DNA of 45,994 nt from positions 1 through 45,994 of the IMG/VR virus record IMGVR_UViG_3300028735_000014. One strand, written 5' to 3'. The translations under genes and the position numbers were made by a program. How positions within the stretch are numbered: the first letter of the stretch is position 1; each line of letters starts with the position of its first letter. This document shows positions 15,888 to 38,225 of this stretch, one piece after another. The notes under the pieces were generated by a model. It ran no database searches, had not been told where the DNA came from, and worked only from the letters and a program-made list of their open reading frames with translations. Source of the stretch: a virus.

Positions 15888-16817
15888 TTAGACACCAGTT
15901 GAACCAACGCTACCCGCCCAATCAGCCACAAAATAAGCTTCACGATAATTGCCTTGATATTTATATGAACGGTTATCGCTATACTCCCAAGAGACCAAAG
16001 AAGTCTGCACCCCCTGGCGCACCACGCGCTTGACTCCATGAAAGTCTGATAGCAAGAACCAGGCCGTGTCTGAACCGCCGGCTGCCGCACCCAGATACGG
16101 AGACGTCATCACTTCAATGCCGAAAACAGACATATAGACGTTGACGGCGTTGTTTGAACTATCAGACACCAAAACAGATTGCGTGATCTGGATAGCATTT
16201 TTGAAGTTAGCCGGGGCGACAACAAGATATTTGCCTTCGGAGCCCAAAATAACACCCCGTTGATTCTTCTGTTCGCGCAAAGCAACCATGGCAGCATTTA
16301 GTGTCGTTTCTGATAGGGCGCCAGAGATGAGATTACTAACAACCTCACCACTTAACGTGACATGCGCGTTTGAAATCCACGGCATTCCATCTGGTGTTAG
16401 GGTCGTTGTAAACGCACCACGGAATAGACCGAAGGCGTTATCGTCTTGCGTAACACGAGCCATTAAGGCGAATTGGCGTACATCTTCTGCCCATACATCA
16501 TGCATGTTATCGTCAAACAGATTCTTAGAGATCATGATTTTTTGGGCAAAATCAGACACCAAAACAGTATTCTTGTAACCAGTCTTCGGGGTATCAGATG
16601 GTACAATTGATGTTTCACCAATTGCAGACCACTCACCCGTACCCATATTGACATTATGGATATACGCCGAATGAGTCGTCGTGACCTTACGGAACAACTT
16701 TTCATTTTCCGCTGTCGCAATACCCCATGCGCCAGTGCCTGGAGTTTCAAAAGCCTGGAAGAATACAGCGTCCAACTCAGTACGAGTAATTGCAAGATTA
16801 TCAGCTTCTGTAAACAT
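15888..16817 (-). CDS. Major capsid protein, module A (HK97 fold, Mu gpT-like)
   Basis: 309 residues. The segments TVLVSDFAQKIMISKNLFDD, QDDNAFGLFRGAF, DGMPWISNAHVTLSG and GKYLVVAPANFKNAIQI, plus the late WFLLSDFHGVKRVVRQGVQT, follow the pattern of HK97-fold major head proteins related to Mu gpT. The protein assembles the icosahedral shell around the scaffold. Context agrees: scaffold and decoration-type genes precede it, tail genes follow. Length is typical. It is unlike the module B capsid in length and sequence, which is one reason to think two viruses are represented. Confidence 0.85.
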   Translation of the reverse strand: MFTEADNLAITRTELDAVFFQAFETPGTGAWGIATAENEKLFRKVTTTHSAYIHNVNMGTGEWSAIGETSIVPSDTPKTGYKNTVLVSDFAQKIMISKNLFDDNMHDVWAEDVRQFALMARVTQDDNAFGLFRGAFTTTLTPDGMPWISNAHVTLSGEVVSNLISGALSETTLNAAMVALREQKNQRGVILGSEGKYLVVAPANFKNAIQITQSVLVSDSSNNAVNVYMSVFGIEVMTSPYLGAAAGGSDTAWFLLSDFHGVKRVVRQGVQTSLVSWEYSDNRSYKYQGNYREAYFVADWAGSVGSTGV

Positions 16818-16842
16818 ATCTTTTTTAGATTAATCTATTTTG

Positions 16843-17337
16843 TCAGCTTAAATACGAAACACCTGAGCGGAAGCTGAATGCTACTTTATTCGGGTATTTC
16901 GTTATATCGAGAGGCATAATTACACAGCCATTAGCCGCGCCATCCGTATTGAGCAGCGTATATTTGCCAGCAGTCAAATTCATAACAACTCTATCACCAA
17001 CCGCCAGATCATATTCAGCCTGCGTGTCAAACAACGATGGATTATTTGGCGTGATCAACCATATATCACCGTTATCTATGGGCACAACCTCGACATAACC
17101 ATCAGAGGATGCCGTGTTGGTAGAAGTAGAAACAGCGATGCCACAAAGATAATCAGTGCCGACCACTGGTTTGTTTGTCGCCATAGCAGTCACCACATTC
17201 CCTCCCAATGTCACAGCGACAGGATCGCCTGGGTAAATAAGGTTCGCGGAAGCGGCAACCTTGTATTTGATTGTCCCTTCCGTCTTGTTTTTACCCGCAA
17301 CCAATAATTCAATATCTTTTCGTGTAGGATTAGACAT
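16843..17337 (-). CDS. Probable capsid decoration/stabilisation protein, module A
   Basis: 164 residues from the ATG at 17337. A TTG ten codons upstream is possible but less likely. The body is beta-rich (TIKYKVAASANLIYPGDPVA, GYVEVVPIDNGDIWLITP, AEYDLAVGDRVVMNLTAGKY), a strand pattern like head-decoration proteins of the lambda gpD/DUF2190 kind. It lies between scaffold and capsid genes, the usual place for such a protein. Its gap to the capsid gene contains a 12-bp palindrome at 16826-16837. Confidence 0.6.
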   Translation of the reverse strand: MSNPTRKDIELLVAGKNKTEGTIKYKVAASANLIYPGDPVAVTLGGNVVTAMATNKPVVGTDYLCGIAVSTSTNTASSDGYVEVVPIDNGDIWLITPNNPSLFDTQAEYDLAVGDRVVMNLTAGKYTLLNTDGAANGCVIMPLDITKYPNKVAFSFRSGVSYLS

Positions 17338-17388
17338 AAAGACAGCGTTATTTAAGTCATACCGCAAAAATTCTTTTAAGTTTATTGG

Positions 17389-18105
17389 TCAGTATCGGCG
17401 CTTTTCCACAATGTCATTATCACGCGGGGATGTTGCTGTTCTAGTTATCGCTATCTCTTCAGCTTTCTTTACCATTTTTTCAATTTGTTCAGGAGAATAC
17501 ATATTGCGCGAAGCATATATCCTGCGCAACTCATTGCGTTGCTCTTCTGTCCAATATGTATTTGGCTTGCTTATGGAATTTTCATTCACCCCCGTACCGC
17601 TTCCTACACCTCCATGGAGACTAGCCATCTTTGTCGCTTCCAAAGAACGTCTCAGTTCTTCATTTTCCAGCCTCAATCTCTCTTCCTCAGATGCTTTTCT
17701 CGCGGCTTCTTCTAGCGCCTTTTGTTCCAATTCCCTATCTTGAATTTTTGCGTCAATAACTGATTCTAGTTTATCTGGATCAGATAAATCTTCGAGCGTT
17801 ATTTTTTTGGCTTTCTTGCCCAATTGTTTCGCGGCAAGCAAACCAGCTCGATATATTTCTTTATCTGATTCTACTTTAGCAAGCTTAGCCTTAAGATCGG
17901 CTATTTGTCTTGCCATTTCGTCTGCCGGCGTATCAGACAAATTACCGCCGTTGCCTGCTAGCGTATCAGGCCGTTTACCGCTATTGTCTGCCAGCGTATC
18001 CGCAGACTGTTTACCGCTATTGCCTGCTAGCGTATCAGGCTTTTTACCGCTATCCCCGGTTGCAGTGGTACCGGATTTACCTGCGTTGTTATCTTTTAAA
18101 TCCAT
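17389..18105 (-). CDS. Scaffolding protein, module A
   Basis: 238 residues, highly charged. The N-terminal ~60 residues are a tandem repeat of an 11-12-residue unit (SGKKPDTLAGN, SGKQSADTLADN, SGKRPDTLAGN). Then follows a coiled coil at about 64-160 (DEMARQIADLKAKLAKVESD, AARKASEEERLRLENEELRR) and a helical C terminus (RNELRRIYASRNMYSPEQIE) of the kind that docks on capsid. Position just upstream of decoration and capsid genes supports scaffold. The repeat is also plain in the DNA, around 17925-18050. Confidence 0.75.
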   Translation of the reverse strand: MDLKDNNAGKSGTTATGDSGKKPDTLAGNSGKQSADTLADNSGKRPDTLAGNGGNLSDTPADEMARQIADLKAKLAKVESDKEIYRAGLLAAKQLGKKAKKITLEDLSDPDKLESVIDAKIQDRELEQKALEEAARKASEEERLRLENEELRRSLEATKMASLHGGVGSGTGVNENSISKPNTYWTEEQRNELRRIYASRNMYSPEQIEKMVKKAEEIAITRTATSPRDNDIVEKRRY

Positions 18106-18159
18106 ATTTGTTTACCGCGCTTTGGCACTGCGCGTGGAGTTAAGAATATTATATCACAT

Positions 18160-18510
18160 CTATTTAATAGATGCCACTTTCTTCCTTTGCAAATATTCAG
18201 TATGAATTGCATTTATGGCATTTTCCTGTAAAGCAACCACATGCAGCATAGCTTTTGCGAATAAGAGCTGATCAAAATCCTTAGCTTTCTTTATCCCCAA
18301 ATCAATTGCCTGCGCTTTTATAGTTTCTGTCAATAAAGACCAAATATTAGTTTTCCGCAGTAGAATAATTTCATTAGCCAATTCTTGGAGTTGTTGATCA
18401 GTAGGTATATGGCCGCCAATATACAAATCCCCTTCTTTATACTCTACAAGTTTATCATCATCATAAACCGAATCCAGCGCCTCACAAAATCTACAAACTG
18501 TTTTCGACAT
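18160..18510 (-). CDS. Hypothetical phage protein, 116 aa
   Basis: A mostly helical 116-residue protein beginning MSKTVCRFCEALDSVYDDDK. CRFC is a single CxxC knuckle with no second pair nearby. The rest (QELANEIILLRKTNIWSLLT, LLFAKAMLHVVALQENAINA) is amphipathic helix. It lies between portal and scaffold genes in the late operon, one base from its upstream neighbour. No family recognised. Confidence 0.6.
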   Translation of the reverse strand: MSKTVCRFCEALDSVYDDDKLVEYKEGDLYIGGHIPTDQQLQELANEIILLRKTNIWSLLTETIKAQAIDLGIKKAKDFDQLLFAKAMLHVVALQENAINAIHTEYLQRKKVASIK

Positions 18511-18511
18511 A

Positions 18512-19027
18512 TTAGATTTCTTGCGCTGCTGTCAACGCATCAGCTACTTCCAAAAACAACTCCTGCCCCTTACCATCACCATTTACATCCCACATTTGGA
18601 CTGTTTGCTTAAAAACAGGAAGAAGCACATTTTCGTATTCCTCATTAGAGATTTTCACATCTATCATCGTATCAGGTTCAGCTTTCGATTCCTTTTGTAT
18701 TTCAGCCGCGCGTATATTGAACTCCAACTGTAAATCACGCGCCATTTTGGCGGCCTCTTCTTTACTCTTGCCAATTACTTCTTTATCATATTTTGCCTTT
18801 ATTTCAGCAAAAACATCACGTTTCTTTTTTTCAGTCTCCTCAACCGCCTCCACAAAAACATGATTTGCATCCATTATTTTTTTAACAATAGATAAATTCT
18901 TTCGTACAGCTTTTATAGCATCATAACCTGCCTCGCTACAAGCATCTACCACCTTCTGCCCATCCATCGTGCGAAGACGATGCGCTAACCCGTAAGCCAA
19001 AGAAGATTTGATCGTTATTTTCATCAT
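18512..19027 (-). CDS. Hypothetical helical phage protein, 171 aa
   Basis: 171 residues, strongly helical with a lysine/glutamate-rich middle (VEETEKKKRDVFAEIKAKYD, SKEEAAKMARDLQLEFNIRA), ending in a segment with MWDVNGDGKGQELF, which has a calcium-loop-like look (DVNGDGKGQE) that may be coincidental. Its ATG overlaps the stop of the preceding gene (ATGA-type), so translation is coupled. Late-operon position between portal and scaffold suggests a virion assembly accessory. No known domain identified. Confidence 0.6.
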   Translation of the reverse strand: MMKITIKSSLAYGLAHRLRTMDGQKVVDACSEAGYDAIKAVRKNLSIVKKIMDANHVFVEAVEETEKKKRDVFAEIKAKYDKEVIGKSKEEAAKMARDLQLEFNIRAAEIQKESKAEPDTMIDVKISNEEYENVLLPVFKQTVQMWDVNGDGKGQELFLEVADALTAAQEI

Positions 19028-19440
19028 ATAGTTTTATTGCTTTTATACTTAGGGCAAGTTTTTAAGTGCTTTACCCCTTTCGAATCACAAAAATCGCAAA
19101 AACGCTTCTTCGGCTCTATAAATTCTTTTGTCTCCGTCTCAGTTCCCTGTACAGTTTTTTTGCCCATTATTTCATCAACGCATAAACCGAAAAGATAATT
19201 GATATCGGTACTTTGATAATTCACGCCACGTTTTTTCAACCACTCAGTCATCCTTTCTACCGTTAGCACACGTAAATCATCAATCGTAAAGCCATCAGAT
19301 TCTACACGTGTATTGCCCAACTCAGTAATACAACGTGGTGTCCCAGTGCATTTTATATCAAACTCTTTAGCTAAAGCGTTCCGCGTTTCCGGCGGCACTT
19401 GTAGCCAAACATATGGCGTAATAGTGATTTCAATATTCAT
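19024..19440 (-). CDS. Hypothetical protein with C-terminal Cys cluster, 138 aa
   Basis: 138 residues. The N-terminal domain is mixed alpha/beta (TPYVWLQVPPETRNALAKEF, DLRVLTVERMTEWLKKRG). The last 25 residues, CDFCDSKGVKHLKTCPKYKS, contain C-x2-C and a third cysteine plus histidine that could bind zinc. Start and stop overlap both neighbours by four bases, showing tight translational coupling downstream of portal. Function unknown. Confidence 0.6.
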   Translation of the reverse strand: MNIEITITPYVWLQVPPETRNALAKEFDIKCTGTPRCITELGNTRVESDGFTIDDLRVLTVERMTEWLKKRGVNYQSTDINYLFGLCVDEIMGKKTVQGTETETKEFIEPKKRFCDFCDSKGVKHLKTCPKYKSNKTI

Positions 19441-19607
19441 TTCTTTCTTTTGGCCTTAACCGAAGTAGGTTTCCAGCCATGTTCAACGGCATTCAGCAAA
19501 CGCTTCTGCCTCTTAGCTTTAATCAAAGTAGTAGCTTTCGCTTTGACTCCACCAGGAGTGCTTACTTTGACTTTACCATTTTTAAGTTTTTTTATTTTCA
19601 CTGGCAT
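19437..19607 (-). CDS. Small basic phage protein, 56 aa
   Basis: 56 residues, about one third lysine or arginine: MPVKIKKLKNGKVKVSTPGG, then KAKATTLIKAKRQKRLLNAV and EHGWKPTSVKAKRKK. Its pattern (KVSTPGGVKAK.TT...A..Q.RLL.AVEHGW.P) is one I recognise from tiny proteins next to phage portal genes. Their function is unknown, and nucleic-acid contact is a guess from charge. It starts nine bases after portal stops and overlaps the next start in ATGA fashion. Confidence 0.7.
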   Translation of the reverse strand: MPVKIKKLKNGKVKVSTPGGVKAKATTLIKAKRQKRLLNAVEHGWKPTSVKAKRKK

Positions 19608-19616
19608 AAAATACAA

Positions 19617-21629
19617 TTAAGAATTAGCGAATAATTGAGGGATTGATGATTGTCCTGGGTTATTCCACTGTTGCCCTTGTGATTGCATATTAGCAAGAGC
19701 GAGATTATTCTCTTGCCCATTTGTTTTATTTACAAAACTCTCAGGATGACGAGCTGTGATCGGATTAATACTGTATAGAAGCTTCTTAGCCACTTCCTCC
19801 ATATTATTAAGCCCAGGATGAACTTGTTCAAGTTTAATTATCTGATCAAGCATTTCCAAATTCCGTTGAAAGCGAATATCATCACTCTTCGGAGTTAACA
19901 CATCCTCAGTCATCATCATATAATATTTGAGCTCTCTTATACGACGCGGATCGACTTTAATAATTTCAGTTTCTGAGTTCAAACCCCCTTGCTCTTCCAG
20001 CAAATCATATGAAGCGGCTAATTGTTTTTCTTTATCCGCCATTTCATCACCAAAAAGCTCAAATTTAATCTTTCTTCGTCTAGTTTTCCCCCCAGTCGTC
20101 TTCAAATCAACCAATAATGATTGATATCTCAAACTTGCCTTTGCACCCTGCATTTTTTCCACATCCCCCACTGTCAAAAACTGTAAAATATCTCCCAATA
20201 CAATGCGCGTTAATTGTACTGAGGCTCCTATCAATTCAGAAAAAAATGGACCAAGATCTTGCTGCACTTGTTGCTCGCGCAAACTCAGCTCATATGCCGT
20301 TATTCTACCAGGCATTCTATCAACTGGAGATGCTTGTATATTCGCTGTCTGATTTAATGATTCTTCGACTTTCATCATCGCATTGAGCAGATTTGTAGTC
20401 TGCAAAGGCGGCAATAACGGATCTAGTCTACTTTCAGGATCACGCATGTTTATTGTCGCACCCGGTATTATCACATCGGAACTGATCATGTCTTTTCCGA
20501 TATATTTCATCGGCTTTATCGTATCCAAAATAGCTCCATCTATTAACACTGGATAAAGAGTATTTATGATATTAGCGTCATGAGACACGCTGAAAACAAG
20601 CGATTTCCCATAAAAAAAGTTTTCACGGATCCAAGAAAAATACCATTTGGCAAACGGATATAAACCATCTTCACGCGGATTCTTTTCATCTGCCTCTCCG
20701 ATTATTATCCCATTCACCATAACCACTCTGCTCCCGCCATTTTCCTTAGTCCAATAAATTATCTCCTCATCAAGCTCTCCTCTAAGGTTAGGATCATAGA
20801 CAAAATAAAAACCCTGGTTCGCATCATTAAAAATCAATTGCATGCCAGGCCTCACCTTGTCCCAATTTTTTTGCCCATGATATTTAATATCCAATTGATT
20901 ATGACTCTGTATCCTGCGCCAGATAATGAAACGTTGTTTCTGTATATCTTTTTCAAAAATATTCTCTATAAAAATCTGATCAGTCGGGACAATAGTAGCA
21001 ATAAACCCAGAATTTGCTTCATCTAGATCATATCTATAATTCCATGTCCCATCTTCATTACGGTTAGTTTTTGTTTTCTTGTATACTTGTCTAAATTCAT
21101 GATTGACAATGCAAGCCGGTGAGACTTCAGATTGCAAAATAGCATGCAACCACCATTCTTTAGGGAAGTAAGTCGAATTAACCCATTCAATTATACTATT
21201 TATGACCATCGATGCATCATCATCAGGATAAGCGTCGGCATCAGTAGCTTGCAAGCGCAAGAAACCAAGTCTATTAGCGGCATGGCCAGCCATTGAGATG
21301 CATTTGTTCCTCTCTATTGGGCGTATTGCGTTAGAACGCCATGCATTTGATGGATCACCCAAAAGAGGCTCTCCGTTATTAGGTTGATAAGTATTAAATG
21401 CCATGCTATCTACCTGATCACGCCTCAATACACTTAAATCATTAAACTCCTGCCGCGGGCGAGACATCGTATTATAGCCCAATGTAAAATCAGAGATAAT
21501 CTTGCTTCTTACCTCCTTTTCTAAATCAGAAAATTGATAATTTGATGCCTCAATTTTTATTTCTGGATCTTGCTCTTTCGTCCCAACTTTTACTAACGCA
21601 TTTTTCAACCTCGAATCTATAATCGACAT
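19617..21629 (-). CDS. Portal protein, module A
   Basis: 670 residues, in the size range of podovirus portals. It follows TerL by 15 bases. Features include a central beta-rich wing, a long helical stem region (SHDANIINTLYPVLIDGAIL, LNAMMKVEESLNQTANIQAS) and the RITAYELSLREQQVQQDLGP segment, typical of portal tunnel/crown transitions in which Gln-rich helices line the channel. The dodecameric ring would form the DNA entry vertex and dock TerL. The C-terminal tail is Gln/Asn-rich and disordered. It shows no close similarity to the module B portal although the two are exactly the same length. Confidence 0.85.
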   Translation of the reverse strand: MSIIDSRLKNALVKVGTKEQDPEIKIEASNYQFSDLEKEVRSKIISDFTLGYNTMSRPRQEFNDLSVLRRDQVDSMAFNTYQPNNGEPLLGDPSNAWRSNAIRPIERNKCISMAGHAANRLGFLRLQATDADAYPDDDASMVINSIIEWVNSTYFPKEWWLHAILQSEVSPACIVNHEFRQVYKKTKTNRNEDGTWNYRYDLDEANSGFIATIVPTDQIFIENIFEKDIQKQRFIIWRRIQSHNQLDIKYHGQKNWDKVRPGMQLIFNDANQGFYFVYDPNLRGELDEEIIYWTKENGGSRVVMVNGIIIGEADEKNPREDGLYPFAKWYFSWIRENFFYGKSLVFSVSHDANIINTLYPVLIDGAILDTIKPMKYIGKDMISSDVIIPGATINMRDPESRLDPLLPPLQTTNLLNAMMKVEESLNQTANIQASPVDRMPGRITAYELSLREQQVQQDLGPFFSELIGASVQLTRIVLGDILQFLTVGDVEKMQGAKASLRYQSLLVDLKTTGGKTRRRKIKFELFGDEMADKEKQLAASYDLLEEQGGLNSETEIIKVDPRRIRELKYYMMMTEDVLTPKSDDIRFQRNLEMLDQIIKLEQVHPGLNNMEEVAKKLLYSINPITARHPESFVNKTNGQENNLALANMQSQGQQWNNPGQSSIPQLFANS

Positions 21630-21644
21630 ATCGTTTATATTATA

Positions 21645-23216
21645 TCATGAATTCATATTATTGCGAATAACCTCCATTCTCGCCGCGCCATATCTATAAG
21701 CCCCCAAAGCGGCTTTACTAACATTGATTGTACCTTCCCGCCTAGGCCTATCCACAACCTCACTAGCCATAGATAAAGCATCCATAGCATCGTCATATTC
21801 TGATATAGGAAAACGCAACAACTCTGTTTCTAAATCCTGGCATCTATTTTCTACGTGCCAAATACTATGTTCAGCATATCTAGGTTGCAAAGTAAGTATC
21901 CTATCTTTTTTGCTAGCTTTACTCGTATGAACCAATTCTTTTATATTAAGTCTAGTGCCCCTACGCCTCTCCTCTTCTTCTATATGCACTTTCATACCTT
22001 GCCAAAACTGCGTGTTTTCTATGCCAATTTGGATAATGCTTTCATTATCCCAAAGAGCAAATATAGTGTCGACCATCTGTTTTGGCGTATGTCTAGCTCT
22101 CCAGCACTCCACCAACCATTTATTATCTGTCGTCACTTTCACCAATGCATAACCAATAAAATCTCCCTCACCTTTACGTATAGCCGCTTCTGTATAAGCC
22201 TGCCCAGGAGGATCTATAAGCAAATAGCAGGCCGTATCCTTAGCATCAACCTCAGATCTAGAGATATATCGAAACATATCCCTAGAAAACTTAGCCAGAG
22301 CCGGATCGAATGGTTTCCCCATCATCTCCCTCATAAAGTCAGCATGACCGTTATTAGGAGTCCACATGCGGCGTTTTAATTCTTCAATTGACACTTTATC
22401 AGAACCGATTGCCTCCTCATCACTCAAAACATATTTCTGCGGCCATGTCGGCATGCCATTATCATCAACTATCCAAACCGTTCTTACCCGCATAGAATCA
22501 TCTGTTTTCGCCCTATCTATTATACTTTGTACAGTCCCAACCTCAGATAATCTATTCCCCAAATATAATACTCTCCCGCGCTCTTGATCCAAACCACCCT
22601 TAAACTCTGATATATGCTCTCTCACCTGCCTTGTAGCTGCTTCGCTACGAATTGTCGTCATATCTTCAAAATCATCCATTATTATGAACTGCGGGCGTGT
22701 AGATCCATGCAAACGCCCACGAACAGGCTCTTGCGTTGAGTGAGCTTCTACCCGAACTCCGTTGCTAGTCAAAAAATCCATTATACTTTTCTGCGTTTTT
22801 TGTTCATCTGTACGCTTAGCATTAAATAATTCTCCAAAATCACGTTTTAATCTCTTATTGATCTGCAATTCTAACACCACATCAAATAAAAAACGCCCAG
22901 AATTATTTTTATCATGGCTATCAACATTTATATAATCAAACTTTTTATAGGCTATACACCATAACACCACCCCCTTAGCAAAAGATGTTTTAGCGCTTTC
23001 TCGAAACATAAACCATCCCAATTCTTTCAAATTACCATCCACTAAATCACGTATATCTTGCCCCATCTCATAATGAAAATCGGCATATGGATATTTGATA
23101 TAATGCAAAAAATAATATGAAAAAAACAATAAAAAATCCCTCTGCATAACATAAAATCTCTGGCGCGGGTTAGCGTTGTCTAACCAAAATATCTGTTCCG
23201 CAGTTATACGATTCAT
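21645..23216 (-). CDS. terL: Terminase large subunit, module A
   Basis: 523 residues: the ATP-driven DNA-packaging motor and genome-cutting nuclease. A divergent Walker A is at about 70-79 (MFRESAKTSF) and Walker B at 177-184 (FIIMDDFEDM) with the catalytic acidic residue. The RNase H-like nuclease domain shows D335 in YLLIDPP, E400 in QIGIENTQFW and D475/D476 in SEYDDAMDAL. All key residues are present, so it looks functional. It follows TerS by one base and precedes portal. Confidence 0.95.
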   Translation of the reverse strand: MNRITAEQIFWLDNANPRQRFYVMQRDFLLFFSYYFLHYIKYPYADFHYEMGQDIRDLVDGNLKELGWFMFRESAKTSFAKGVVLWCIAYKKFDYINVDSHDKNNSGRFLFDVVLELQINKRLKRDFGELFNAKRTDEQKTQKSIMDFLTSNGVRVEAHSTQEPVRGRLHGSTRPQFIIMDDFEDMTTIRSEAATRQVREHISEFKGGLDQERGRVLYLGNRLSEVGTVQSIIDRAKTDDSMRVRTVWIVDDNGMPTWPQKYVLSDEEAIGSDKVSIEELKRRMWTPNNGHADFMREMMGKPFDPALAKFSRDMFRYISRSEVDAKDTACYLLIDPPGQAYTEAAIRKGEGDFIGYALVKVTTDNKWLVECWRARHTPKQMVDTIFALWDNESIIQIGIENTQFWQGMKVHIEEEERRRGTRLNIKELVHTSKASKKDRILTLQPRYAEHSIWHVENRCQDLETELLRFPISEYDDAMDALSMASEVVDRPRREGTINVSKAALGAYRYGAARMEVIRNNMNS

Positions 23217-23217
23217 T

Positions 23218-23631
23218 CTATAAATTAGGGAACATTTTCTTGATATCCTCCTTTTCTTCTTCCGTCATATTCAATTCAGTATATGCCACCGCCATTTCTG
23301 ATCTTAAAGCAAATTCCGACTTCGCCTTACGCTCCAAATACCATTTTGATGTCTCTACATTCCCAGCGCTGATATTTGAAACTACAACGTGCCTAGCCTT
23401 TAATATCGGTTTCTGCCTTAATTGAGCAAAACGTTCAGATAGTTTAGGGAATTCCTTTATCCATCTATAATAAGTATCTAAGCTGATTCCAGCAAACATG
23501 CATGCTTCCGGGATACTCGCATCAATGGCAAAAGCCTCTTCCAGCTTAGCCAATGTCTCAGGAGTCATTTTATATTTTATCTGTTCCCCCCTAGGGTTAT
23601 TGGGTGTAGGCCTAGCCATATTTTTTACCAT
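23218..23631 (-). CDS. terS: Terminase small subunit, module A
   Basis: 137 residues from the ATG at 23631, which overlaps the TGA of the small HTH gene. The N-terminal helix-turn-helix (about 22-55: MTPETLAKLEEAFAIDASIP, ACMFAGISLDTYYRWIKEFP) is the TerS DNA-recognition domain. Next is a helical oligomerisation region (KARHVVVSNISAGNVETSKW, YLERKAKSEFALRSE) with the KWYLERK...EF signature common in small terminases. The C terminus is acidic and should contact TerL. It recognises the packaging start site on the phage DNA. Confidence 0.85.
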   Translation of the reverse strand: MVKNMARPTPNNPRGEQIKYKMTPETLAKLEEAFAIDASIPEACMFAGISLDTYYRWIKEFPKLSERFAQLRQKPILKARHVVVSNISAGNVETSKWYLERKAKSEFALRSEMAVAYTELNMTEEEKEDIKKMFPNL

Positions 23632-23810
23632 CAAAATAAATGCCGTTTTGGATCCTTCCGCGCCAATCTATAATAGGTATCTTGACTTATTCCTGCATAT
23701 TCACACGCCTCTTTTATCCTTGCACCAGCAAAAATAGCCTCCTTCAATTTAGCTAACGCTCTAGGAGTAATTTTACGTTTTTTCTGCTTTTTTAATAAAG
23801 AATCTGCCAT
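23631..23810 (-). CDS. Stand-alone TerS-like HTH protein, 59 aa
   Basis: 59 residues, starting MADSLLKKQKKRKITPRALA and ending KDPKRHLF. It matches the DNA-binding half of the adjacent terminase small subunit almost position by position: ITPRALAKLKEAIFAGARIK versus MTPETLAKLEEAFAIDASIP, then EACEYAGISQDTYYR versus EACMFAGISLDTYYR. It lacks the oligomerisation and TerL-contact parts. It is therefore a partial tandem duplication, kept as an open gene with a very basic N terminus. It may compete with or assist TerS at the packaging site; that role is inferred. Confidence 0.75.
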   Translation of the reverse strand: MADSLLKKQKKRKITPRALAKLKEAIFAGARIKEACEYAGISQDTYYRLARKDPKRHLF

Positions 23811-23819
23811 ATTAAGATC

Positions 23820-24386
23820 TCAAATCTCCTCACCGCCAAACCTCTGATTTAATACTGCCTTGAACTCATGGCCGCACTTAGGACATACAATATCCTGGAC
23901 TCTACTATCATATTTATTAGCCAGATTCTCAAAAGCACTGCCCAATTTAGCCCCAACTTTCTTTATATCAGCATCTTTTACAATATCCGTATCTACATCA
24001 GGTAAATTTAAATCTATCTTTTCCTTAAAAAACTGCTGCATAAAATCAAAATCCTCTATCTCTCTCAACTCCAAAGACAAATCATCCGTCCATTCTGCAA
24101 ACTCACTAGTTTTATTGTCTATGATACGATATTGCTTAGCCTGTTTTGGATCTAAATCAGCTTCTATAACATCTATTTGCTCATACCCCAACTCTTTGAG
24201 AGCTCTCCAACGCGCATGACCAACTATTATGGTATTATTTTTATCAACGCATATATATTGATTATACCCAAATTTCCGTATACTTTCAACCACCACTTTA
24301 ACCGCCGCATCATTTGAACGCGGATTGCGCCAATATGGCTTGATTTCATTGATATTAAGCGTTTTTAGCTTCCCCATCTTTTGCAT
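23820..24386 (-). CDS. ParB-domain protein with C-terminal Cys knuckle
   Basis: 188 residues. The ParB/Srx-fold N-terminal domain (about 8-95) has INEIKPYWRNPRSND, the GHARWRALKELGY motif at 56-68 and DPKQAKQYRIIDNK at 79-92. That is the form usually fused to phage adenine methyltransferases, but the methyltransferase domain is missing. Residues 95-160 are helical and acidic. CPKCGHEF at 168-175 gives one CxxC knuckle. The start overlaps ibrB by about 30 bases. It could be a nuclease, an NTP-dependent clamp or a specificity subunit. Its place between the ibrAB pair and the terminase ties it to DNA. Confidence 0.75.
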   Translation of the reverse strand: MQKMGKLKTLNINEIKPYWRNPRSNDAAVKVVVESIRKFGYNQYICVDKNNTIIVGHARWRALKELGYEQIDVIEADLDPKQAKQYRIIDNKTSEFAEWTDDLSLELREIEDFDFMQQFFKEKIDLNLPDVDTDIVKDADIKKVGAKLGSAFENLANKYDSRVQDIVCPKCGHEFKAVLNQRFGGEEI

Positions 24387-24924
24387 ATTGCATTCTTAGT
24401 TTAATCTGGGCTTTGGATTCCCAGGCTTTTTTATATTCAACATTTTCAAACAACTTCGAAGAACCTGTGACATGCTTCAAGCGCAAAAGCTCCTCTTCCT
24501 CCAAGCCTATTTCATTGCATATTTGCGCATCTGACCAGCCGTTATCAAGCATCTTAAACACTATATTAGCCATACCAACGACTGAATGCTTGCCCCTCGC
24601 TCTATTATGCCTGATTGTAGCGGCCATGCGATTATTTATATCCCCATCAATCACAACAATAGGCAAAAGACCACCTGTCGAATTATAGACATCTTTATAG
24701 TTTTTCATCACAAAATATCTATGAAAACCATCAACAATGATATATTTTTTCTTTTCAGGATCATACATTGTAACTATCGGTTGCGTATACCCATCATGAT
24801 TGATTGAAGTATGCAAAAGACGCATTTCATTTCTTGCCACAGAATTTGGGTTGTAATCATTTGCTACTACATCCTCAATAGGAACCCATTTGACATGATT
24901 GACTGGATGCTGATCTAAGCTCAT
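24355..24924 (-). CDS. ibrB: IbrB-like ParB-domain protein
   Basis: 189 residues. WVPIEDVVANDYNPNSVARN, then SINHDGYTQPIVT, IVDGFHRYFVM (63-73) and TIRHNRARGKH (103-113), followed by a helix-turn-helix-like segment (DNGWSDAQICNEIGLEEEEL), match IbrB closely. IbrB is the partner of IbrA, named from E. coli where the pair controls immunoglobulin-binding proteins. The biochemical activity is not established. The fold is ParB/sulfiredoxin-like, a family that includes nucleases and CTPases. It overlaps ibrA by four bases and is the second half of the conserved pair. Confidence 0.85.
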   Translation of the reverse strand: MSLDQHPVNHVKWVPIEDVVANDYNPNSVARNEMRLLHTSINHDGYTQPIVTMYDPEKKKYIIVDGFHRYFVMKNYKDVYNSTGGLLPIVVIDGDINNRMAATIRHNRARGKHSVVGMANIVFKMLDNGWSDAQICNEIGLEEEELLRLKHVTGSSKLFENVEYKKAWESKAQIKLRMQYAKDGEAKNA

Positions 24925-26048
24925 ACAGTTATATCATCATTTATGAATCCTCTTTTTTTCTGTGCCTGCTTCCACAACCCAGAAAAAGCGACCTTAAAAT
25001 TTTTCAACTTGGTCAAAGCATAATCATTTGCAAGTATACTCTGCACAACCACTCTACAAGCTTTATCCATTAAATCAGGGTATCCCTTAAACAATTTCTC
25101 ATGATAATCAATAAAATCCTTTATATCCTGCTTCCATTTTTCATTTTTAATTAAATTCTTAGCTAAATACTCGCCATATTCACGCCAACCACTGAACATA
25201 TATGGGACTTTTTCTATAAAATAATTCTCATAGCCCATTTTACCCGCCATATCAACACCCCCCAACCTCTCGACTAACTTATCATATAATTCATGATCAA
25301 CTTCCTGAAGATAGAACAAACTATCAACCGCCGTTTCATGGTGCAAACTCGAAATACGCATATGCTTCAATGACACCCCATATTGGTATTGCAAATCATA
25401 CATTTTATTATACTTCCATCCATTATCATTTATGGCCTTCCAAATATCAGTATAAGACCAATCATAGAGAGGGTAAAAAGTAAAATGATTATTTCTCCCA
25501 GCTTTTTTATTCCCCCAAGTTATATGTTTGTAAACTCGTCCATTTATCAATGCCGCATGTCGGCCTGGGCTTTCTTCGCATCTTACACCCGAAACACAAC
25601 AATGCTTCTTCCCAGCAAAATCTTTATTAAAAATAGCCCCAAATATGCCATACCACCAACCTACCCCATAAGTATTTTCTTTAATCGAAATAGGCTCTTT
25701 TTCTCTTAACCATTTTTTCCCAGGTTCCCAGCAATACAAAAACGTATCCTTAAACGAAGTAGCGTTTTCTATACGTATCGGGATTTGGTACCAATATGGA
25801 TCTACGATTTTATCTGACATCACATATCTAACCATCTCTATGGTCTCGTTCCATTCAGCTTCTTGATCGATAAACAAAACACTTATTCTGCGTCCTCTCT
25901 CTAACGCTACTTTTTTAGCCAATTCAAAAATCACAGTCGAATCTTTACCCCCTGAATAACCTACCGTCACTTCTTCGAACTCATCGAATAAAAAATTCAT
26001 CCTTTCAAGCGCAGCTTCCCATACATTTTTATCAGAATAAATTTTCAT
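24921..26048 (-). CDS. ibrA: IbrA-like PP-loop ATPase (PAPS reductase family)
   Basis: 375 residues. The PP-loop SGGKDS is at 32-37 within [18 protein letters not shown], and the adenylylating family motif [10 protein letters not shown] follows, after a CC pair. [19 protein letters not shown] is the usual W-x-x-x-D-I-W strand/helix of PAPS reductase relatives. The C-terminal helical region ([20 protein letters not shown]) fits the DUF3440-type tail of IbrA. Such enzymes adenylate a substrate using ATP and release pyrophosphate. Sulfur transfer or nucleotide modification is the usual chemistry, but the substrate here is unknown. It overlaps AdoMetDC and ibrB by four bases each. Confidence 0.87.
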
Positions 26049-26428
26049 AACACCGGATAAAGCAACCCCCTATTTTGAATATGAACTTCCATATCCTTTA
26101 TAGAATATGCCAAGCGTAAAATATCAATAATCTGCCCAATATTCATATTCCCCCTACAAGTATAAACATCTATACTCACAAACCCAACATGTGGGAACGT
26201 ATGTATCGAGATATGACTTTCTTGAATTATGACAAACCCGCTATATCCTCCATGATCGCCTTTATCGTTATTAAAAGCCTCAACTATTTTGGGCTCAATA
26301 AGCATTTTCATCTTCTCATTATTAGCTATTTTTTTCATTATATCGCTCATCAAAGCTTTATCCTGCAAAGCCTTAAACTCGCACCCATATCCATCAATCA
26401 TCAAATGTTGTCCAAATATTTTAACCAT
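26045..26428 (-). CDS. speH: S-adenosylmethionine decarboxylase, prokaryotic type
   Basis: 127 residues from the ATG at 26428; full length for the SpeH class. The self-processing site is intact: E70-S71 in [12 protein letters not shown], where S71 would become the pyruvoyl cofactor. H76 and C91 (VYTCRG) complete the catalytic set, so it should convert S-adenosylmethionine to decarboxylated SAM. No aminopropyltransferase is seen in the window, so ordinary spermidine synthesis is not supported here. It may feed an aminopropyl modification or drain SAM from host methyltransferases. It overlaps the glycosyltransferase by eight bases and ibrA by four. Confidence 0.92.
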
Positions 26429-27029
26429 AATTCCCAATATAATCTAACGAATTGCCTATGTTATGCCCAAGTGTGCTTTTTTTACCAATATGATCAAACA
26501 AAGTCGGTATAGTGACCACCCATTCTATTCTGTTTTGTACCAAATATTCTTGAATAACATTATCAAAATGCTTCGCTCGTTTCTCATCCAAAATGTCTTT
26601 TCCTACATTAGTATACCATTTTTTTATTCTACCTATTAAACCCTGTTGATTTATATAAATTACAGCATGATAATAATAAGCACCTGGGAATACACCTTTC
26701 ACATATCCCCTAGCCCGATTCTCCGGAGTAAAAAGATGCCTACGCCGGTTCATAAAACAATAAATCTCGCCCTGCACTTTATTATGCAACTCATTAAAAC
26801 GTTTATACCAATCTGGTACAGTAACCACATCATCGCACATAATCAAAATAGGCTCTCCATCCTGAGCATTATCTAACATATCCTCCATGCACCTTGATAA
26901 ATTGTAAGTATGACCGTATTTATTCACATCATTAAAAATTTTCAATACATCCACAAAAGGGGCTATTAAACTAACCAAGGCCGGAAGATATTGCTGACGA
27001 TCAGGCGTTGTTATTATACCCGCTTTCAT
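26421..27029 (-). CDS. Glycosyltransferase-like protein (GT-A type)
   Basis: 202 residues. The N-terminal strand/loop [20 protein letters not shown] and the acidic motif [15 protein letters not shown] (D66-D67 as the metal/nucleotide-sugar site) are GT-A features. The C-terminal [17 protein letters not shown] matches the P..v.HIG..StlGh segment of small phage and bacterial glycosyltransferases. It probably transfers a sugar from a nucleotide sugar. Acceptor unknown: DNA, a virion protein or a cell-surface glycan are all possible. It is the first large gene of the module A late operon and is coupled to AdoMetDC, which makes a nucleic-acid or small-molecule target worth considering. Confidence 0.7.
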
Positions 27030-33367: not shown

Positions 33368-33502
33368 ATGCCAAAAGCTATGGAAGAAGCCTTGAAAAAA
33401 GAGGCTACCAAGAAAGGGTTGACCGGTGATAGCTGGAATGCCTATGTGTACGGTACTTTGGCCAAGTTCAAAGAAGCCGCTAACAAGCCAAAAAAGAAGT
33501 GA
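33368..33502 (+). CDS. Small phage protein, 44 aa
   Basis: 44 residues: MPKAMEEALKKEATKKGLTG then DSWNAYVYGTLAKFKEAANK. The pattern ALK.EA.KKGL.G...AYVYGTL.K is one I recognise from very small proteins beside phage packaging genes. Role unknown. It ends two bases before the TerS ATG. Confidence 0.7.
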   Translation: MPKAMEEALKKEATKKGLTGDSWNAYVYGTLAKFKEAANKPKKK

Positions 33503-33504
33503 CT

Positions 33505-34017
33505 ATGGGAAGACCCAAAGGAAGTAAAAACCTGACGCCCGAAGAGCGTGCCGAAAGGCTAAGGGTGTACAATGCGCAAAAATTGCCACCTCATCGACCT
33601 ACTACATGGAAGCCTGAATACAATCAAGCCATAATTGATTGGTTTGAGGATGCCGCTTTACACCCATTCAGAGAAGTAGTTGATAATCATGGCAGGATAC
33701 AATTAGTGCCGAAACGATGCCCTACTCTTGAAGGATTTGCGCATTCCATCGGGACTGTGCCCCAGGTTTTGGAACGTTGGGCGGAAGAGGAAAACAAAGA
33801 TAAGTACCCCGGGTTTAGCGAATCTCATTCACGTGCTTTGAAATTACAGAAGGATTTTTTGCTATCTACAGGGCAATCTGGCGCGGCTGACTCTAGGTTC
33901 ACAATGTTCATGCTAAAGAATAACCACGGCATGAGAGATACGACCGATGTTACGAATGACGGCGGGAAGTTTGAGCCGCCAGTCATCATTAACCCAGGTA
34001 AAGATTTGACCATCTAA
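33505..34017 (+). CDS. terS: Terminase small subunit, module B
   Basis: 170 residues from the ATG at 33505; a GTG two codons upstream overlaps the previous stop and is possible. It opens with an AT-hook-like MGRPKGSKNLTPEERAERLR. A helix-turn-helix follows near residues 70-95 (PTLEGFAHSIGTVPQVLERW). A helical region then leads to RFTMFMLKNNHGMRDTTDV, a signature frequent in terminase small subunits. Its stop overlaps the TerL ATG by one base. It would mark the module B genome for packaging and shares no clear similarity with the module A TerS. Confidence 0.8.
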   Translation: MGRPKGSKNLTPEERAERLRVYNAQKLPPHRPTTWKPEYNQAIIDWFEDAALHPFREVVDNHGRIQLVPKRCPTLEGFAHSIGTVPQVLERWAEEENKDKYPGFSESHSRALKLQKDFLLSTGQSGAADSRFTMFMLKNNHGMRDTTDVTNDGGKFEPPVIINPGKDLTI

Positions 34018-35429
34018 TGGGTATCACGATAACTCAAGACCGCTGGATAGGGCGCCCGAACGAGTTTTTAGATAGAGATGGACAAAGACATCCTCTACCC
34101 GTCCTTGACGCTTTCATGGCCTCGAGAGCCAAGAGACAGATACTTGTTGCCCATAGGCGCGGACGAAAAACTACAAAAGCGCTGGAAAAAATGTTCCAGT
34201 ATTTATGGGCTAACCCTGGGATAGTGGGGAAAACATTGGCGCCTATACGCAAGCAAGCCAAAGAAATAATATGGGATGATCCCGACATGTTATTCCATCC
34301 GAATGTTTGCAATCCGAATATTATATCCAAAGTAAATCATAGCGAATTAAAGATTACGCTAAAAAATGGCAGTTTATGGAGCTTGGACGGCATGGACGAC
34401 CCGCAATCTAAGCGCGGCGGCAATGCCAAAGTAGTGCATTTTACAGAAGCAGGCGACCATGAAGAGTCCGGTTGGAGCCAGATATACGAGCCTATTTTGA
34501 CGGCGAATAACGGCGTTGCCATTTTCGAGGGCAACCCGCGTGGCAGGAATTGGTATTATCGTCTGTTCAATAACGCGGAAGGACGCGAAGGCTGGGAAAG
34601 GTTTTATATGCCGGCGGCACGATTGGACGCCCAAGGTAAACTAGAACCTCTTACGCCTATTTTTACGCTTGAACAATTACAGGATTTGCGAAGCCATAAT
34701 CCTGACGCTGTATTTAGGGCTGAATATCTTTGCGAATGGGTAGATAGTGTCGGCACCGTATTCCGCAATTTTGAGCGTTTGGCCATAGCACAACCTGAAA
34801 AAGCCAGGAAAGGCAGGCGATACCGCATAGGTGTTGACTTGGCAAAATTGCAAGATTTTACTGTTTTGACCGTGGTGGACAGGCACGAATGGCGTGAGGT
34901 GGCTATTGACCGTTTTAATCAGATTGACTGGACATTGCAGAAAGAGCGCATCAAGGCCATGGCTAAGGAATATGGAGCTAAAGAGAATGGCAATAAGCTG
35001 GAAGTGTTGATAGAAAGCAATGGCGTCGGTGATCCGATATTCGATGATTTATGGAAATGGGCGGCATCTGACGAAATACGCAAGGCATACGACATAACAT
35101 TTACGCCATTTAGAACGACCAACGAAACCAAGGCTATGATAGTAAGCAATTTGTCTATGCTCTTTGACGAGGGGATTATCACGATATTGCCGGATCCGGT
35201 GGCCTTGCGTGAGCTTAGCGCGTTCGCCTATAAGAAATCGTCTTTGCACTTCATCTATGGCGCGCCGAATGGGGAGCATGACGATACCGTCATGAGCAAG
35301 GCTTTAGCTTTTTGGGAGCTAGGCGCAAAACTCCCCGAACCTATTGACAACGATAAGCCTCAGCATAAGTGGGGATTGCCGCCCGAAGCCTATAAAAACA
35401 GGACTTCACACCCTTTATGGCTGGGCTAA
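34017..35429 (+). CDS. terL: Terminase large subunit, module B
   Basis: 470 residues. The Walker A-like element ILVAHRRGRKTT is at 42-53 (divergent, with R-R-x-R-K-T) and Walker B is VVHFTEAG at 139-146. The nuclease domain has D274 in RIGVDLAKLQDF, E333 in VLIESNGVGDP and D422/D423 in GEHDDTVMSKAL. All catalytic positions are present. It is clearly distinct from the module A TerL: shorter and with a different ATPase motif. It sits between TerS and portal. Confidence 0.95.
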   Translation: MGITITQDRWIGRPNEFLDRDGQRHPLPVLDAFMASRAKRQILVAHRRGRKTTKALEKMFQYLWANPGIVGKTLAPIRKQAKEIIWDDPDMLFHPNVCNPNIISKVNHSELKITLKNGSLWSLDGMDDPQSKRGGNAKVVHFTEAGDHEESGWSQIYEPILTANNGVAIFEGNPRGRNWYYRLFNNAEGREGWERFYMPAARLDAQGKLEPLTPIFTLEQLQDLRSHNPDAVFRAEYLCEWVDSVGTVFRNFERLAIAQPEKARKGRRYRIGVDLAKLQDFTVLTVVDRHEWREVAIDRFNQIDWTLQKERIKAMAKEYGAKENGNKLEVLIESNGVGDPIFDDLWKWAASDEIRKAYDITFTPFRTTNETKAMIVSNLSMLFDEGIITILPDPVALRELSAFAYKKSSLHFIYGAPNGEHDDTVMSKALAFWELGAKLPEPIDNDKPQHKWGLPPEAYKNRTSHPLWLG

Positions 35430-35440
35430 AATTGTAATGT

Positions 35441-37453
35441 ATGCAGGACGGCAAGAAAGAAATAGACGTATTCGAGCGTGATTGGAATACCGCACGCGAG
35501 CATTGGAAACGTAAACATCGTGTCTGGGATTATAACTACCTGACATACCGTTCCGTGCTGACGTATAACGACATATACGGTGAGAAATATCTCAAAGCGT
35601 TCGGCTTGCAGGTGTTCGTGCCGCGCACGTTTCAGACTGTCGAAAGTTTGTCATCCGCAATTCTGGCCAAAGATACGTCATTCACGGTCAAGGGATTGAA
35701 CCTGTTAGACAATAAAAAGAGCAAATACTTCGAGCGCATGGACAATGTGGAATGGAAGCGGTCGGGCGCGGAAGAAGCGACCGCAACAGCTCGGCGCGAT
35801 GCGCTCATATATGGCATGGGGCATATTCTTAATTGTTATGTAGAGGATACGGAAACTCTTGATTTTCCTGTCAATAAAGCCAAAGAAAACGAGAAACCTG
35901 AAGAGGACAAGGATGGCCAGCCAGAGGAACAAGAGACTGCGTTGCCTAAAAACAAGAAAGAAATCGAATGGGAAAAGAAAGAGGTTATTCGTTATCGCGG
36001 CATGAAGCCGGAAGCCATCGACCCGTATTATTGCTTTCCTGACCCGTCGGCCAGCGATGCGAAATCACGCCGTTACCTGTATCGCTACAAGATTTGGAAC
36101 GTTGACGAATTGCGCGACTGGGTTGTCGGTAAAGGTTGGATGGACGAGAAAGAAGCAGCCCAAAAGATACAGCCGACGAACGTGGAATACTTTGACGCTA
36201 TCCGCGACACGATTGATTGGATGTATCAAATGCCGCTCAATACGGGCTATACGCGAGGAAACCACGCTGACCCGAATGACGCGGCCTTGAAACCTTACCA
36301 GAGGCCGACCGAAAACATGGTGGCTACGATAGAACGCTACGAGAAGAATTACTACGAATGCCGCCTAGCTGACCAGACTCCACTATATTCTGACTTTAAT
36401 GTTTATCCGCATAAGAAAATCCCAGTCGTCACGTTCTATAACTACAAAATAGAGCACAGAGACGAAGGAATGGGCGAGCCTGAAATCATCCGACACCAGC
36501 AACTCGAGGAAAACAAGATACACAATTTTGTATTGCAGACGCTTTTAATGAGCATAGTCCAGCGATATGCAGTGCATGCTGACTTGTTAGATGACGAAAA
36601 TGACTTATACATGAGCGACCCGTTTAAGCCTATACGGCTGAAATCCTTGCCCGGACTATCCGTGCAACAAGCCATAATGCCCATGCCGCAACCGGACGTG
36701 AAGCAGATTCCGTTCGAACTTATGGGGCTTGTAAAAGATACTTTGCAAGCTACAAGTGGAGCGTCGGACTTTATCGTCTCTGCCAACGACGCATCAACCA
36801 ACACGGCCACAGAGAGCAACAACCTCATGGCCGCCACGACAGGACGCATACGCGGGAAAATCCGCGCGATGGAACCAAGTCTGCGCGAAATCGTGGAGCA
36901 ATGGCATACGTGTTTTGCTTTTTTCTACGACCAAGAGATGGACTTACTTATCACAGGCGATGACCAGTATTACAAGTATTTACCTTATAACAGGGAAGAA
37001 GCAGACGAAAATCCGGTACTCATGGCTCGTGCCTCTCAAAAATACGATGCCGTCGGCGATACTTTGGAAGAGATATACAGAAATGCAGGCTTTGCCGATG
37101 TTATTTATCTATCTGACTTAATGGGCGAGATGGTGGTAAGCGTGCAGACAACCGACCCAGAAATAAATAAAGATAAGACCGTGGTTAAGTTCTCAGAGGC
37201 CATTCGCCTCATGAACGAGGCTAATAACGCGGCTAAAATGGCTGGAGATACGCGCCAGTTCGATTCTTTCAAGCTAGCTAAGGACGCTTTGGCCAACTTC
37301 GACTTCATTAAGGACATATCGGAATACGTGAAAGGCGAGGGGAAACAAGCCTTACAAGCGCCAGTTATTCCTCCGCCGCAACCGGAACCAGCTATGAACA
37401 CTACTAATCCGAACATAGCGGCAGAAATGCCAGCTATGCCGATGACACAATAA
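35441..37453 (+). CDS. Portal protein, module B (P22-like)
   Basis: 670 residues. The segment GEPEIIRHQQLEENKIHNFV, a helix lining the channel, and the following LQTLLMSIVQRYAV are typical of P22/SU10-type portals. An acidic low-complexity loop lies near residues 140-175 (EKPEEDKDGQPEEQETAL). The C-terminal helix-rich barrel is followed by a Pro/Met-rich disordered tail. The ring would join head, motor and tail. Same length as the module A portal but not visibly related in sequence. Confidence 0.85.
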   Translation: MQDGKKEIDVFERDWNTAREHWKRKHRVWDYNYLTYRSVLTYNDIYGEKYLKAFGLQVFVPRTFQTVESLSSAILAKDTSFTVKGLNLLDNKKSKYFERMDNVEWKRSGAEEATATARRDALIYGMGHILNCYVEDTETLDFPVNKAKENEKPEEDKDGQPEEQETALPKNKKEIEWEKKEVIRYRGMKPEAIDPYYCFPDPSASDAKSRRYLYRYKIWNVDELRDWVVGKGWMDEKEAAQKIQPTNVEYFDAIRDTIDWMYQMPLNTGYTRGNHADPNDAALKPYQRPTENMVATIERYEKNYYECRLADQTPLYSDFNVYPHKKIPVVTFYNYKIEHRDEGMGEPEIIRHQQLEENKIHNFVLQTLLMSIVQRYAVHADLLDDENDLYMSDPFKPIRLKSLPGLSVQQAIMPMPQPDVKQIPFELMGLVKDTLQATSGASDFIVSANDASTNTATESNNLMAATTGRIRGKIRAMEPSLREIVEQWHTCFAFFYDQEMDLLITGDDQYYKYLPYNREEADENPVLMARASQKYDAVGDTLEEIYRNAGFADVIYLSDLMGEMVVSVQTTDPEINKDKTVVKFSEAIRLMNEANNAAKMAGDTRQFDSFKLAKDALANFDFIKDISEYVKGEGKQALQAPVIPPPQPEPAMNTTNPNIAAEMPAMPMTQ

Positions 37454-37455
37454 CT

Positions 37456-37746: not shown

Positions 37747-37749
37747 TGT

Positions 37750-38106: not shown

Positions 38107-38113
38107 TAAAACA

Positions 38114-38188
38114 ACACAAAACTCCACAAACGGTGCGGGGTCCATGTCCCGTAGCGGTTTTTGGGGTTTTGTGTGGTTAGTGGAGTTT
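38114..38188 (+). promoter_or_regulatory. Mutually exclusive hairpins ahead of scaffold gene
   Basis: Two perfect 9-bp helices compete for overlapping bases: 38114-38122 with 38166-38174, and 38119-38127 with 38180-38188. Both enclose a CGGG/CCCG stem (about 38136-38151). Only one outer helix can form at a time, the layout of an RNA switch or attenuator. It stands before the terminator-like hairpin at 38226-38246 and the scaffold/capsid genes. Confidence 0.45.
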
Positions 38189-38225
38189 CCATACAAAATC
38201 AAAAAGCCAAAGCTAAGGGACAAAG

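What the first reader, a model, noticed from the sequence alone, without database searches (positions are those of the whole stretch)
23820..27029. Glycosyltransferase-AdoMetDC-ibrA-ibrB-ParB cassette wired into a phage packaging operon
Five genes that are not ordinary virion genes overlap one another by 4-32 bases and run straight into TerS/TerL: a GT-A-like glycosyltransferase, a complete AdoMet decarboxylase, an IbrA-like PP-loop ATPase, an IbrB-like ParB-fold protein and a second ParB-fold protein. The sequence shows the active-site motifs. Known: PP-loop and ParB proteins pair as IbrA/IbrB, and AdoMetDC makes decarboxylated SAM. Inference: together they may modify DNA or a nucleotide (adenylation, then aminopropyl or sugar transfer) before packaging, or act against host restriction. 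I do not know of a described system with this composition.
Basis: partly seen in the sequence, partly recalled or inferred. Interest (0 to 1): 0.82.

Follow-up and report, generated by a model that had tools for sequence, protein, structure and literature searches.

The report
Modular phage DNA-modification cassette beside terminase
A phage carries, just before its DNA-packaging genes, a recurring set of enzymes (an ATP-using activator, DNA-binding proteins, a sugar-transfer enzyme and an amine-making enzyme) that sits where related phages carry a DNA methyltransferase, so it probably decorates phage DNA in a way nobody has yet characterised.

Summary
The five genes are real, complete and overlapping (GT 26421-27029, SpeD, IbrA, IbrB, ParB, minus strand) and run into TerS/TerL. 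They are not a one-off: the same five recur in another phage contig (L004). In 80 IbrA-containing viral loci IbrB is almost always present (76) and a ParB protein usual (51). Interchangeable enzymes fill the space before IbrA: glycosyltransferases, DPPW-type DNA-methylase-like proteins, GNATs, class-I methyltransferases, SpeD, and an undescribed ~90-residue protein. GT-IbrA and SpeD fusions occur. A sister phage (TerL 71%, portal 69%, capsid 86%) has a ParB-DNA-methyltransferase fusion in the same position. Best reading: a modular DNA-hypermodification cassette replacing a methyltransferase. Its 'AdoMetDC' step is doubtful: the nearest cellular kin are candidate-phyla SpeD homologs, several beside deoxyhypusine-synthase-like genes, a setting where ornithine/arginine decarboxylases are known. 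Boldest testable version: IbrA adenylates a base or phosphate and couples it to putrescine/agmatine, lysidine-fashion. Not shown: any modification, substrate or host. New variant of a known kind.

The parts
26421..27029 (-). GT-A fold glycosyltransferase, 202 aa, invariant Asp-Asp (D66 D67)
   Evidence: AF2 pLDDT 88.9; pdb_via Z 14.6 to POMGNT1 5ggi_B; D66/D67 invariant in 12 of 12 aligned rows; homologs directly before IbrA in L004, L059, L023, L030, L031
26045..26437 (-). SpeD-family pyruvoyl decarboxylase, 130 aa; processing Ser74, His79, Cys94; substrate AdoMet, ornithine or arginine not settled
   Evidence: PF02675 8.2e-26; TIGR03330 86.0 bits; residues invariant in 5-row alignment A3; kin and neighbours
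24921..26048 (-). IbrA-like PP-loop (PAPS-reductase fold) ATPase/adenylating enzyme, 375 aa, SGGKDST
   Evidence: phrog_2302 1.3e-80; PF01507 2.6e-16; SGGKDS in 93 of 98 sequences, no Cys column above 49%
24355..24924 (-). IbrB-like ParB-fold protein, 189 aa, DGFHR box
   Evidence: phrog_2159 1.2e-73; DGxHR in 77 of 77 sequences
23820..24386 (-). Second ParB-fold protein, 188 aa, C-terminal CPKCG zinc-ribbon-like end; kin of ParB-DNA-methyltransferase fusions
   Evidence: phrog_620 6.2e-43, phrog_498 DNA methyltransferase 1.4e-30 over its N-terminal part; PADLOC MTase_II 1.1e-15
23631..23810 (-). 59-aa TerS-like ORF
   Evidence: phrog_4102 2.5e-08
23218..23634 (-). Terminase small subunit
   Evidence: phrog_4102 7.2e-17
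21645..23216 (-). Terminase large subunit
   Evidence: phrog_38 7.6e-57; 71% identical in L255 and L256

Best explanation
The five genes are one version of a modular phage DNA-hypermodification cassette that takes the place of a DNA methyltransferase just upstream of the terminase genes. Proposed working: the two ParB-fold proteins bind DNA and nucleotide and bring the enzymes to the DNA; IbrA uses ATP through its PP-loop to adenylate an oxygen of the target (base carbonyl or phosphate, or the carboxyl of a small group); a nucleophile, most likely the amine made by SpeD, displaces AMP; the glycosyltransferase adds a sugar to the product. The modified DNA is then packaged and resists host nucleases. 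Shown: the genes, their folds and motifs, their recurrence, fusions, and the swap with a methyltransferase. Inferred: that DNA is the target, the order of steps, the amine, and the protective purpose.
For: Recurrence: L004 has ParB-SpeD-S92-GT-IbrA-IbrB-TerS-TerL. In 80 IbrA loci, within 4 kb: IbrB 76, ParB 51, S92 42, GT 34, DPPW methylase-like 32, GNAT 25, class-I MTase 14, SpeD 6, TerL 37; all 46 non-redundant closer loci hold at least one such enzyme. 17 of 80 SpeD loci hold IbrA; S92 is in 16 of those 17 against 2 of 63 without IbrA. Fusions: GT-IbrA (L054), S92-SpeD (L091, L093), SpeD-S92 (L038), S92-MTase (L016, L021, L022, L024, L025 and others). Slot swap: L255, sister of the window phage, has ParB-N6_N4_Mtase (PF01555 1.8e-20) before TerS; the more distant L257 likewise (3.4e-34). 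DPPW-type motif in 32 of 36 members of that family. ParB-MTase fusion plus SpeD plus TerS/TerL in Pseudomonas phage ZRG1, Nmad5 nearby.
Against: No modified nucleoside has been seen, and no chemistry was tested. SpeD is near only 6 of 80 IbrA genes, so it is an optional part. The window lacks S92, the small partner most often present in closer relatives (0 hits). The window's GT could decorate something other than DNA. L256, the other sister, carries only ParB fragments in that place, so the slot is not essential. The slot-enzyme profiles were built from the same loci on which they were counted. More distant IbrA loci (28 non-redundant) rarely have ParB (7), S92 (2) or TerL (1).
Confidence: 0.66

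Rival explanations
1. Backbone route: IbrA/IbrB work like DndC/DndB, adenylating DNA phosphates, but hand on an amine or sugar-bearing group instead of sulfur.
For: IbrA matches DndC (5.6e-08) and BrxP (5e-08) in PADLOC and TIGR03183 DndC (1.3e-06); IbrB has DGxHR in 77 of 77, the box I recall from DndB DGQHR proteins.
Against: No Cys column is conserved in IbrA (highest 49% of 98), so no Fe-S or sulfur chemistry; DPPW-type methylase-like partners point to bases rather than phosphates.
Confidence: 0.12
2. Independent morons: SpeD makes polyamines that neutralise packaged DNA or support translation, GT acts on a capsid or cell-surface sugar, and IbrAB regulates transcription; they merely share a late operon.
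For: 63 of 80 viral SpeD loci have no IbrA; the proven arginine decarboxylase of pelagiphage HTVC201P lies beside ribonucleotide reductase genes, with no cassette gene annotated in the stretch read; phage polyamine enzymes are documented (PMC9992855, passages read).
Against: Recurring gene set in unlike phages, fusions between members, short overlaps in many loci, and swap with a ParB-methyltransferase.
Confidence: 0.12
3. The cassette modifies a free nucleotide, tRNA or a host nucleic acid rather than virion DNA, for example to block host defence signalling.
For: PAPS-reductase-fold enzymes can adenylate small molecules; the best PDB profile match of IbrA is FAD synthase (5.7e-07).
Against: Linkage to terminase (median 409 nt in the 38 of 49 nearer loci where TerL was found), and replacement by a DNA methyltransferase.
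Confidence: 0.1

Closest known systems
Phage ParB-DNA methyltransferase fusions (phrog_498 kind), for example in sister contig L255 and Pseudomonas phage ZRG1
   Same: ParB-like N-terminal domain and position directly upstream of TerS/TerL
   Different: The window has no methylase domain; instead separate IbrA, IbrB, SpeD and GT
IbrA/IbrB pairs of phages (phrog_2302/phrog_2159), for example Flavobacterium phage FCV-1
   Same: Adjacent PP-loop and ParB genes between TerL and portal genes
   Different: FCV-1 has no SpeD or GT hit by blastp to the window proteins in the stretch read
Microbacterium phage Rasputia end region
   Same: GT, S92-MTase fusion and IbrA in one run
   Different: No SpeD, IbrB or second ParB found in the stretch read; three GTs and an acetyltransferase annotated; no terminase annotated there
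Dnd phosphorothioation (DndB/DndC)
   Same: PAPS-reductase-fold enzyme paired with a ParB-superfamily protein (DndB as such: PMC12839542, passages read)
   Different: No conserved cysteines in IbrA; GT/SpeD partners instead of sulfur supply
Neofunctionalised SpeD decarboxylases (PMC9992855, PMC10407285)
   Same: Same family; candidate-phyla kin, some with deoxyhypusine-synthase-like neighbours
   Different: Window SpeD is inside a nucleic-acid-type cassette, not a polyamine operon
Predicted phage lysidine-like and SAM-derivative DNA modifications of Iyer et al. 2013 (recalled; paper not held)
   Same: Idea of lysidine-like or SAM-derivative chemistry on phage DNA
   Different: I could not check whether this gene set is among their systems

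Membership tests
GT-A glycosyltransferase | GT-A fold with acidic metal motif | tested here: met
   Z 14.6 over 185 residues; Asp-Asp invariant in 12 of 12
GT-A glycosyltransferase | Acts on DNA | not testable with these tools
   Needs enzyme assay
AdoMet decarboxylase (bona fide, class 1b) | Processing and catalytic Ser, His, Cys and equivalog score | tested here: met
   S74, H79, C94 invariant in 5 of 5 aligned; 86.0 bits over cut-off 75.65
AdoMet decarboxylase (bona fide, class 1b) | Groups with proven AdoMet decarboxylases | tested here: inconclusive
   Window falls outside the 100-support clade of T. maritima, but proven phiN3 does too, and long branches warn
SpeDC/SpeDA (ornithine/arginine decarboxylase) | Diagnostic residues of the published logo | not tested
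   Only the text was held; the figure that fixes their columns was not
SpeDC/SpeDA (ornithine/arginine decarboxylase) | Kin in polyamine operons without spermidine synthase | tested here: inconclusive
   8 of 80 genome loci, mostly among the best matches, have a deoxyhypusine-synthase-family neighbour; another 30 have a neighbour in an arginase-family cluster (2 of them checked by Pfam); SpeE sought only by a crude GGG[DE]G pattern
IbrA/IbrB pair | phrog_2302 PP-loop plus phrog_2159 ParB, adjacent | tested here: met
PAPS reductase (enzyme) | Conserved catalytic cysteine (recalled ECGLH) | tested here: not met
   No Cys column above 49% in 98 IbrA sequences
Dnd phosphorothioation | DndC cysteines for Fe-S and sulfur transfer | tested here: not met
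   As above
Dnd phosphorothioation | DndA/DndD/DndE partners | not tested
   No search was made for them
Phage DNA hypermodification system | Modified nucleoside in virion DNA | not testable with these tools
   Needs virion DNA
Phage DNA hypermodification system | Conserved linkage with DNA-modifying enzymes | tested here: met

The most novel reading that the evidence does not exclude
A PP-loop enzyme joins a polyamine (putrescine or agmatine, made on site by a repurposed SpeD) or an aminopropyl group to phage DNA bases, lysidine- or agmatidine-fashion, and a dedicated glycosyltransferase caps it. The cassette is a combinatorial kit in which GT, GNAT, methylase-like and SpeD modules are swapped to change the DNA coat.
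Probability: 0.25. Interest if true: 0.92.

Novelty: new variant of a known kind. Interest (0 to 1): 0.74.

Why it matters
If right, a common but uncharacterised class of phage DNA chemistry becomes testable. The swap against a DNA methyltransferase in a sister phage is a natural control. An isolated, sequenced phage (ZRG1) carries a simpler ParB-methyltransferase plus SpeD version, and the ~90-residue S92 protein is a conserved unknown with no clear relative among solved structures. It would also give a use for SpeD genes in phages that lack the rest of a polyamine pathway.

Tried and rejected
Single-protein scans of viral contigs found nothing for IbrA, and one and two loci for SpeD and GT; alignments were needed. 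The alignment scan for GT gave only L003 and L004 again.

A first single-linkage clustering seemed to show SpeD in 54 loci. Inspection showed chaining through fusions: most members are the S92 protein, not SpeD. Dropped.

S92 fold: no PDB match below E 0.2, best VIA Z 5.1, rmsd 4.5, 77 aligned, which may mean only a common arrangement; one BFVD match, A0A516LRX9 E 9.6e-07. No claim of a new fold is made.

IbrA as sulfate-reducing or phosphorothioating enzyme: rejected for want of conserved cysteines.

Diagnostic residues for ornithine decarboxylase: not usable, figure not held. Glu72/Trp70 substrate residues: the paper search gave nothing, so not used.

Literature: nine answered searches that bear on the finding listed no paper whose title or abstract start describes this gene set; apart from passages of PMC12839542, PMC10407285 and PMC9992855 the listed papers were seen as search listings only. 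The library lacks most subscription papers, so this is weak evidence of absence.

Full report
Observation. In reading order they overlap by 17, 4, 4 and 32 nt, and a 9-nt gap leads to a 59-aa TerS-like ORF, TerS and TerL. Families: SpeD PF02675 8.2e-26; IbrA PF01507 2.6e-16 and phrog_2302 1.3e-80; IbrB phrog_2159 1.2e-73; second ParB phrog_620 6.2e-43; TerS phrog_4102; TerL phrog_38. The first gene had no significant Pfam or NCBIfam family and only a weak phage glycosyltransferase match (phrog_2456, E 0.043). Its AlphaFold model from a 12-row alignment has mean pLDDT 88.9 and matches GT-A enzymes (Foldseek best E 9.8e-07; VIA Z 14.6, rmsd 3.6, 185 aligned). An Asp-Asp pair is invariant in all 12 rows.

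Recurrence. A glycosyltransferase scan brought L004, an IMG/VR contig with ParB-SpeD-S92-GT-IbrA-IbrB-TerS-TerL. S92 is my label for a ~90-residue protein found here. Within 4 kb on the same strand these hold IbrB in 76, ParB in 51, S92 in 42, a GT in 34, a DPPW-type methylase-like protein in 32, GNAT in 25, a class-I methyltransferase domain in 14, a further 171-aa-type cluster ('OG', function unknown) in 7, SpeD in 6, TerL in 37 and TerS in 23. After removing 90%-identical IbrAs, 74 loci remain (IbrB 70, ParB 47, S92 38, SpeD 5, TerL 32). All 46 non-redundant loci of the closer group (L011-L060) hold at least one accessory enzyme; the 28 distant ones rarely show ParB (7), S92 (2) or TerL (1). 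The profiles for slot enzymes were built from these same loci, so the counts describe the set rather than test it independently.

The reverse look. A SpeD alignment scan kept 80 of 201 loci; one row of that alignment came from L004, a bias. 17 of 80 hold IbrA. S92 is in 16 of those 17 and in 2 of the 63 others; one of the two, L140, is cut by the contig end.

Anatomy. Among SpeD-bearing cassettes the usual order is ParB, SpeD, S92, one or two tailoring enzymes, IbrA, IbrB, TerS, TerL; in others ParB follows IbrB. The window has GT-SpeD-IbrA-IbrB-ParB-TerS-TerL and no S92. Of 49 closer loci with IbrB, TerL was found downstream in 38, at a median of 409 nt. Fusions tie the parts together: GT-IbrA in L054 (644 aa), S92-SpeD in L091 and L093, SpeD-S92 in L038, S92-methyltransferase in several.

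The slot. The window's TerL is 71% identical to those of L255 and L256 and 45% to L257. L255 also shares portal (69%), the small genes between, and capsid protein (86%). Before its TerS, L255 carries not the cassette but a 393-aa ParB-DNA-methylase fusion (PF01555 1.8e-20), L257 a 463-aa one (3.4e-34), and L256 only ParB fragments. Pseudomonas phage ZRG1 has the same kind of fusion overlapping SpeD, then TerS and TerL, with an Nmad5 gene downstream. The cassette therefore occupies a DNA-methyltransferase position. This is the strongest evidence for a DNA-modifying role.

Chemistry. IbrA keeps SGGKDS in 93 of 98 sequences but no cysteine column exceeds 49%, so it is unlikely to reduce or transfer sulfur; its best PDB profile match is FAD synthase, an adenylating enzyme. 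IbrB has DGxHR in 77 of 77. SpeD keeps the processing Ser, His and Cys. Its best genome matches are mostly candidate-phyla bacteria at 40-48%. In eight of the 80 loci of that scan a deoxyhypusine-synthase-family gene lies near (PF01916 in 8 of 8 tested), and 30 others have a neighbour in an arginase-family cluster (PF00491 in 2 of 2 tested). Published work (abstract and passages read) shows that phage and candidate-phyla SpeD homologs can be ornithine or arginine decarboxylases. The tree puts the window SpeD outside the 100-support clade of the T. maritima enzyme, but branches are long and columns few. I rate a non-AdoMet substrate as more likely than not.

Mechanism. I propose DNA binding by the ParB proteins, adenylation by IbrA, attack by an amine from SpeD, and a sugar cap by GT. 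DNA as target is inferred from context; the amine step is speculative (about 0.25).

Literature. Searches for the combination listed no description. I recall, without having been able to read it, that Iyer and colleagues in 2013 predicted lysidine-like and SAM-derivative phage DNA modifications; part of this idea may therefore be in print. I file it as a new variant of phage DNA hypermodification.

Limits. The window is a linear virus record that also holds a second packaging module. The TerS-to-capsid side is supported as real by synteny with L255, and the cassette is contiguous with it by overlapping or closely spaced genes. Host unknown.

Noticed in passing
window 15888-23634 (-) and 33499-40449 (+): Two different head/packaging modules in one contig: phrog_38 TerL with its portal and capsid on the left, and a Gp3-like TerS, phrog_2 TerL, SU10-like portal and SU10-like capsid on the right. 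Either two adjacent prophages or a chimeric assembly.
   Followed up: no
window 34017-35429: The right-hand TerL, not the cassette's own neighbour, matches the profile of TerLs that follow the cassette in most related loci, so cassettes sit beside at least two TerL families.
   Followed up: partly
L055 7106-7384 and relatives: S92, a conserved ~90-aa protein (FAKTMPKIPH...YKYWTMG...NRAK), no Pfam, PHROG or PADLOC family in the one member scanned, confident model (pLDDT 92.9) without a clear PDB match.
   Followed up: partly
L166 2007-3657 and L006 6548-8393: ParB-methyltransferase fusion overlapping a SpeD gene, whose SpeD groups with T. maritima AdoMet decarboxylase: a candidate for decarboxylated-SAM-dependent DNA aminopropylation.
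   Followed up: partly
L009 1606-3273, L008 5704-6825: SpeD homology inside much longer ORFs (555 and 373 aa), possible fusions.
   Followed up: no
L077 1-4040: IbrA on both strands around TerL, TerS, ParB and IbrB, looks like an inverted-duplicate assembly.
   Followed up: no
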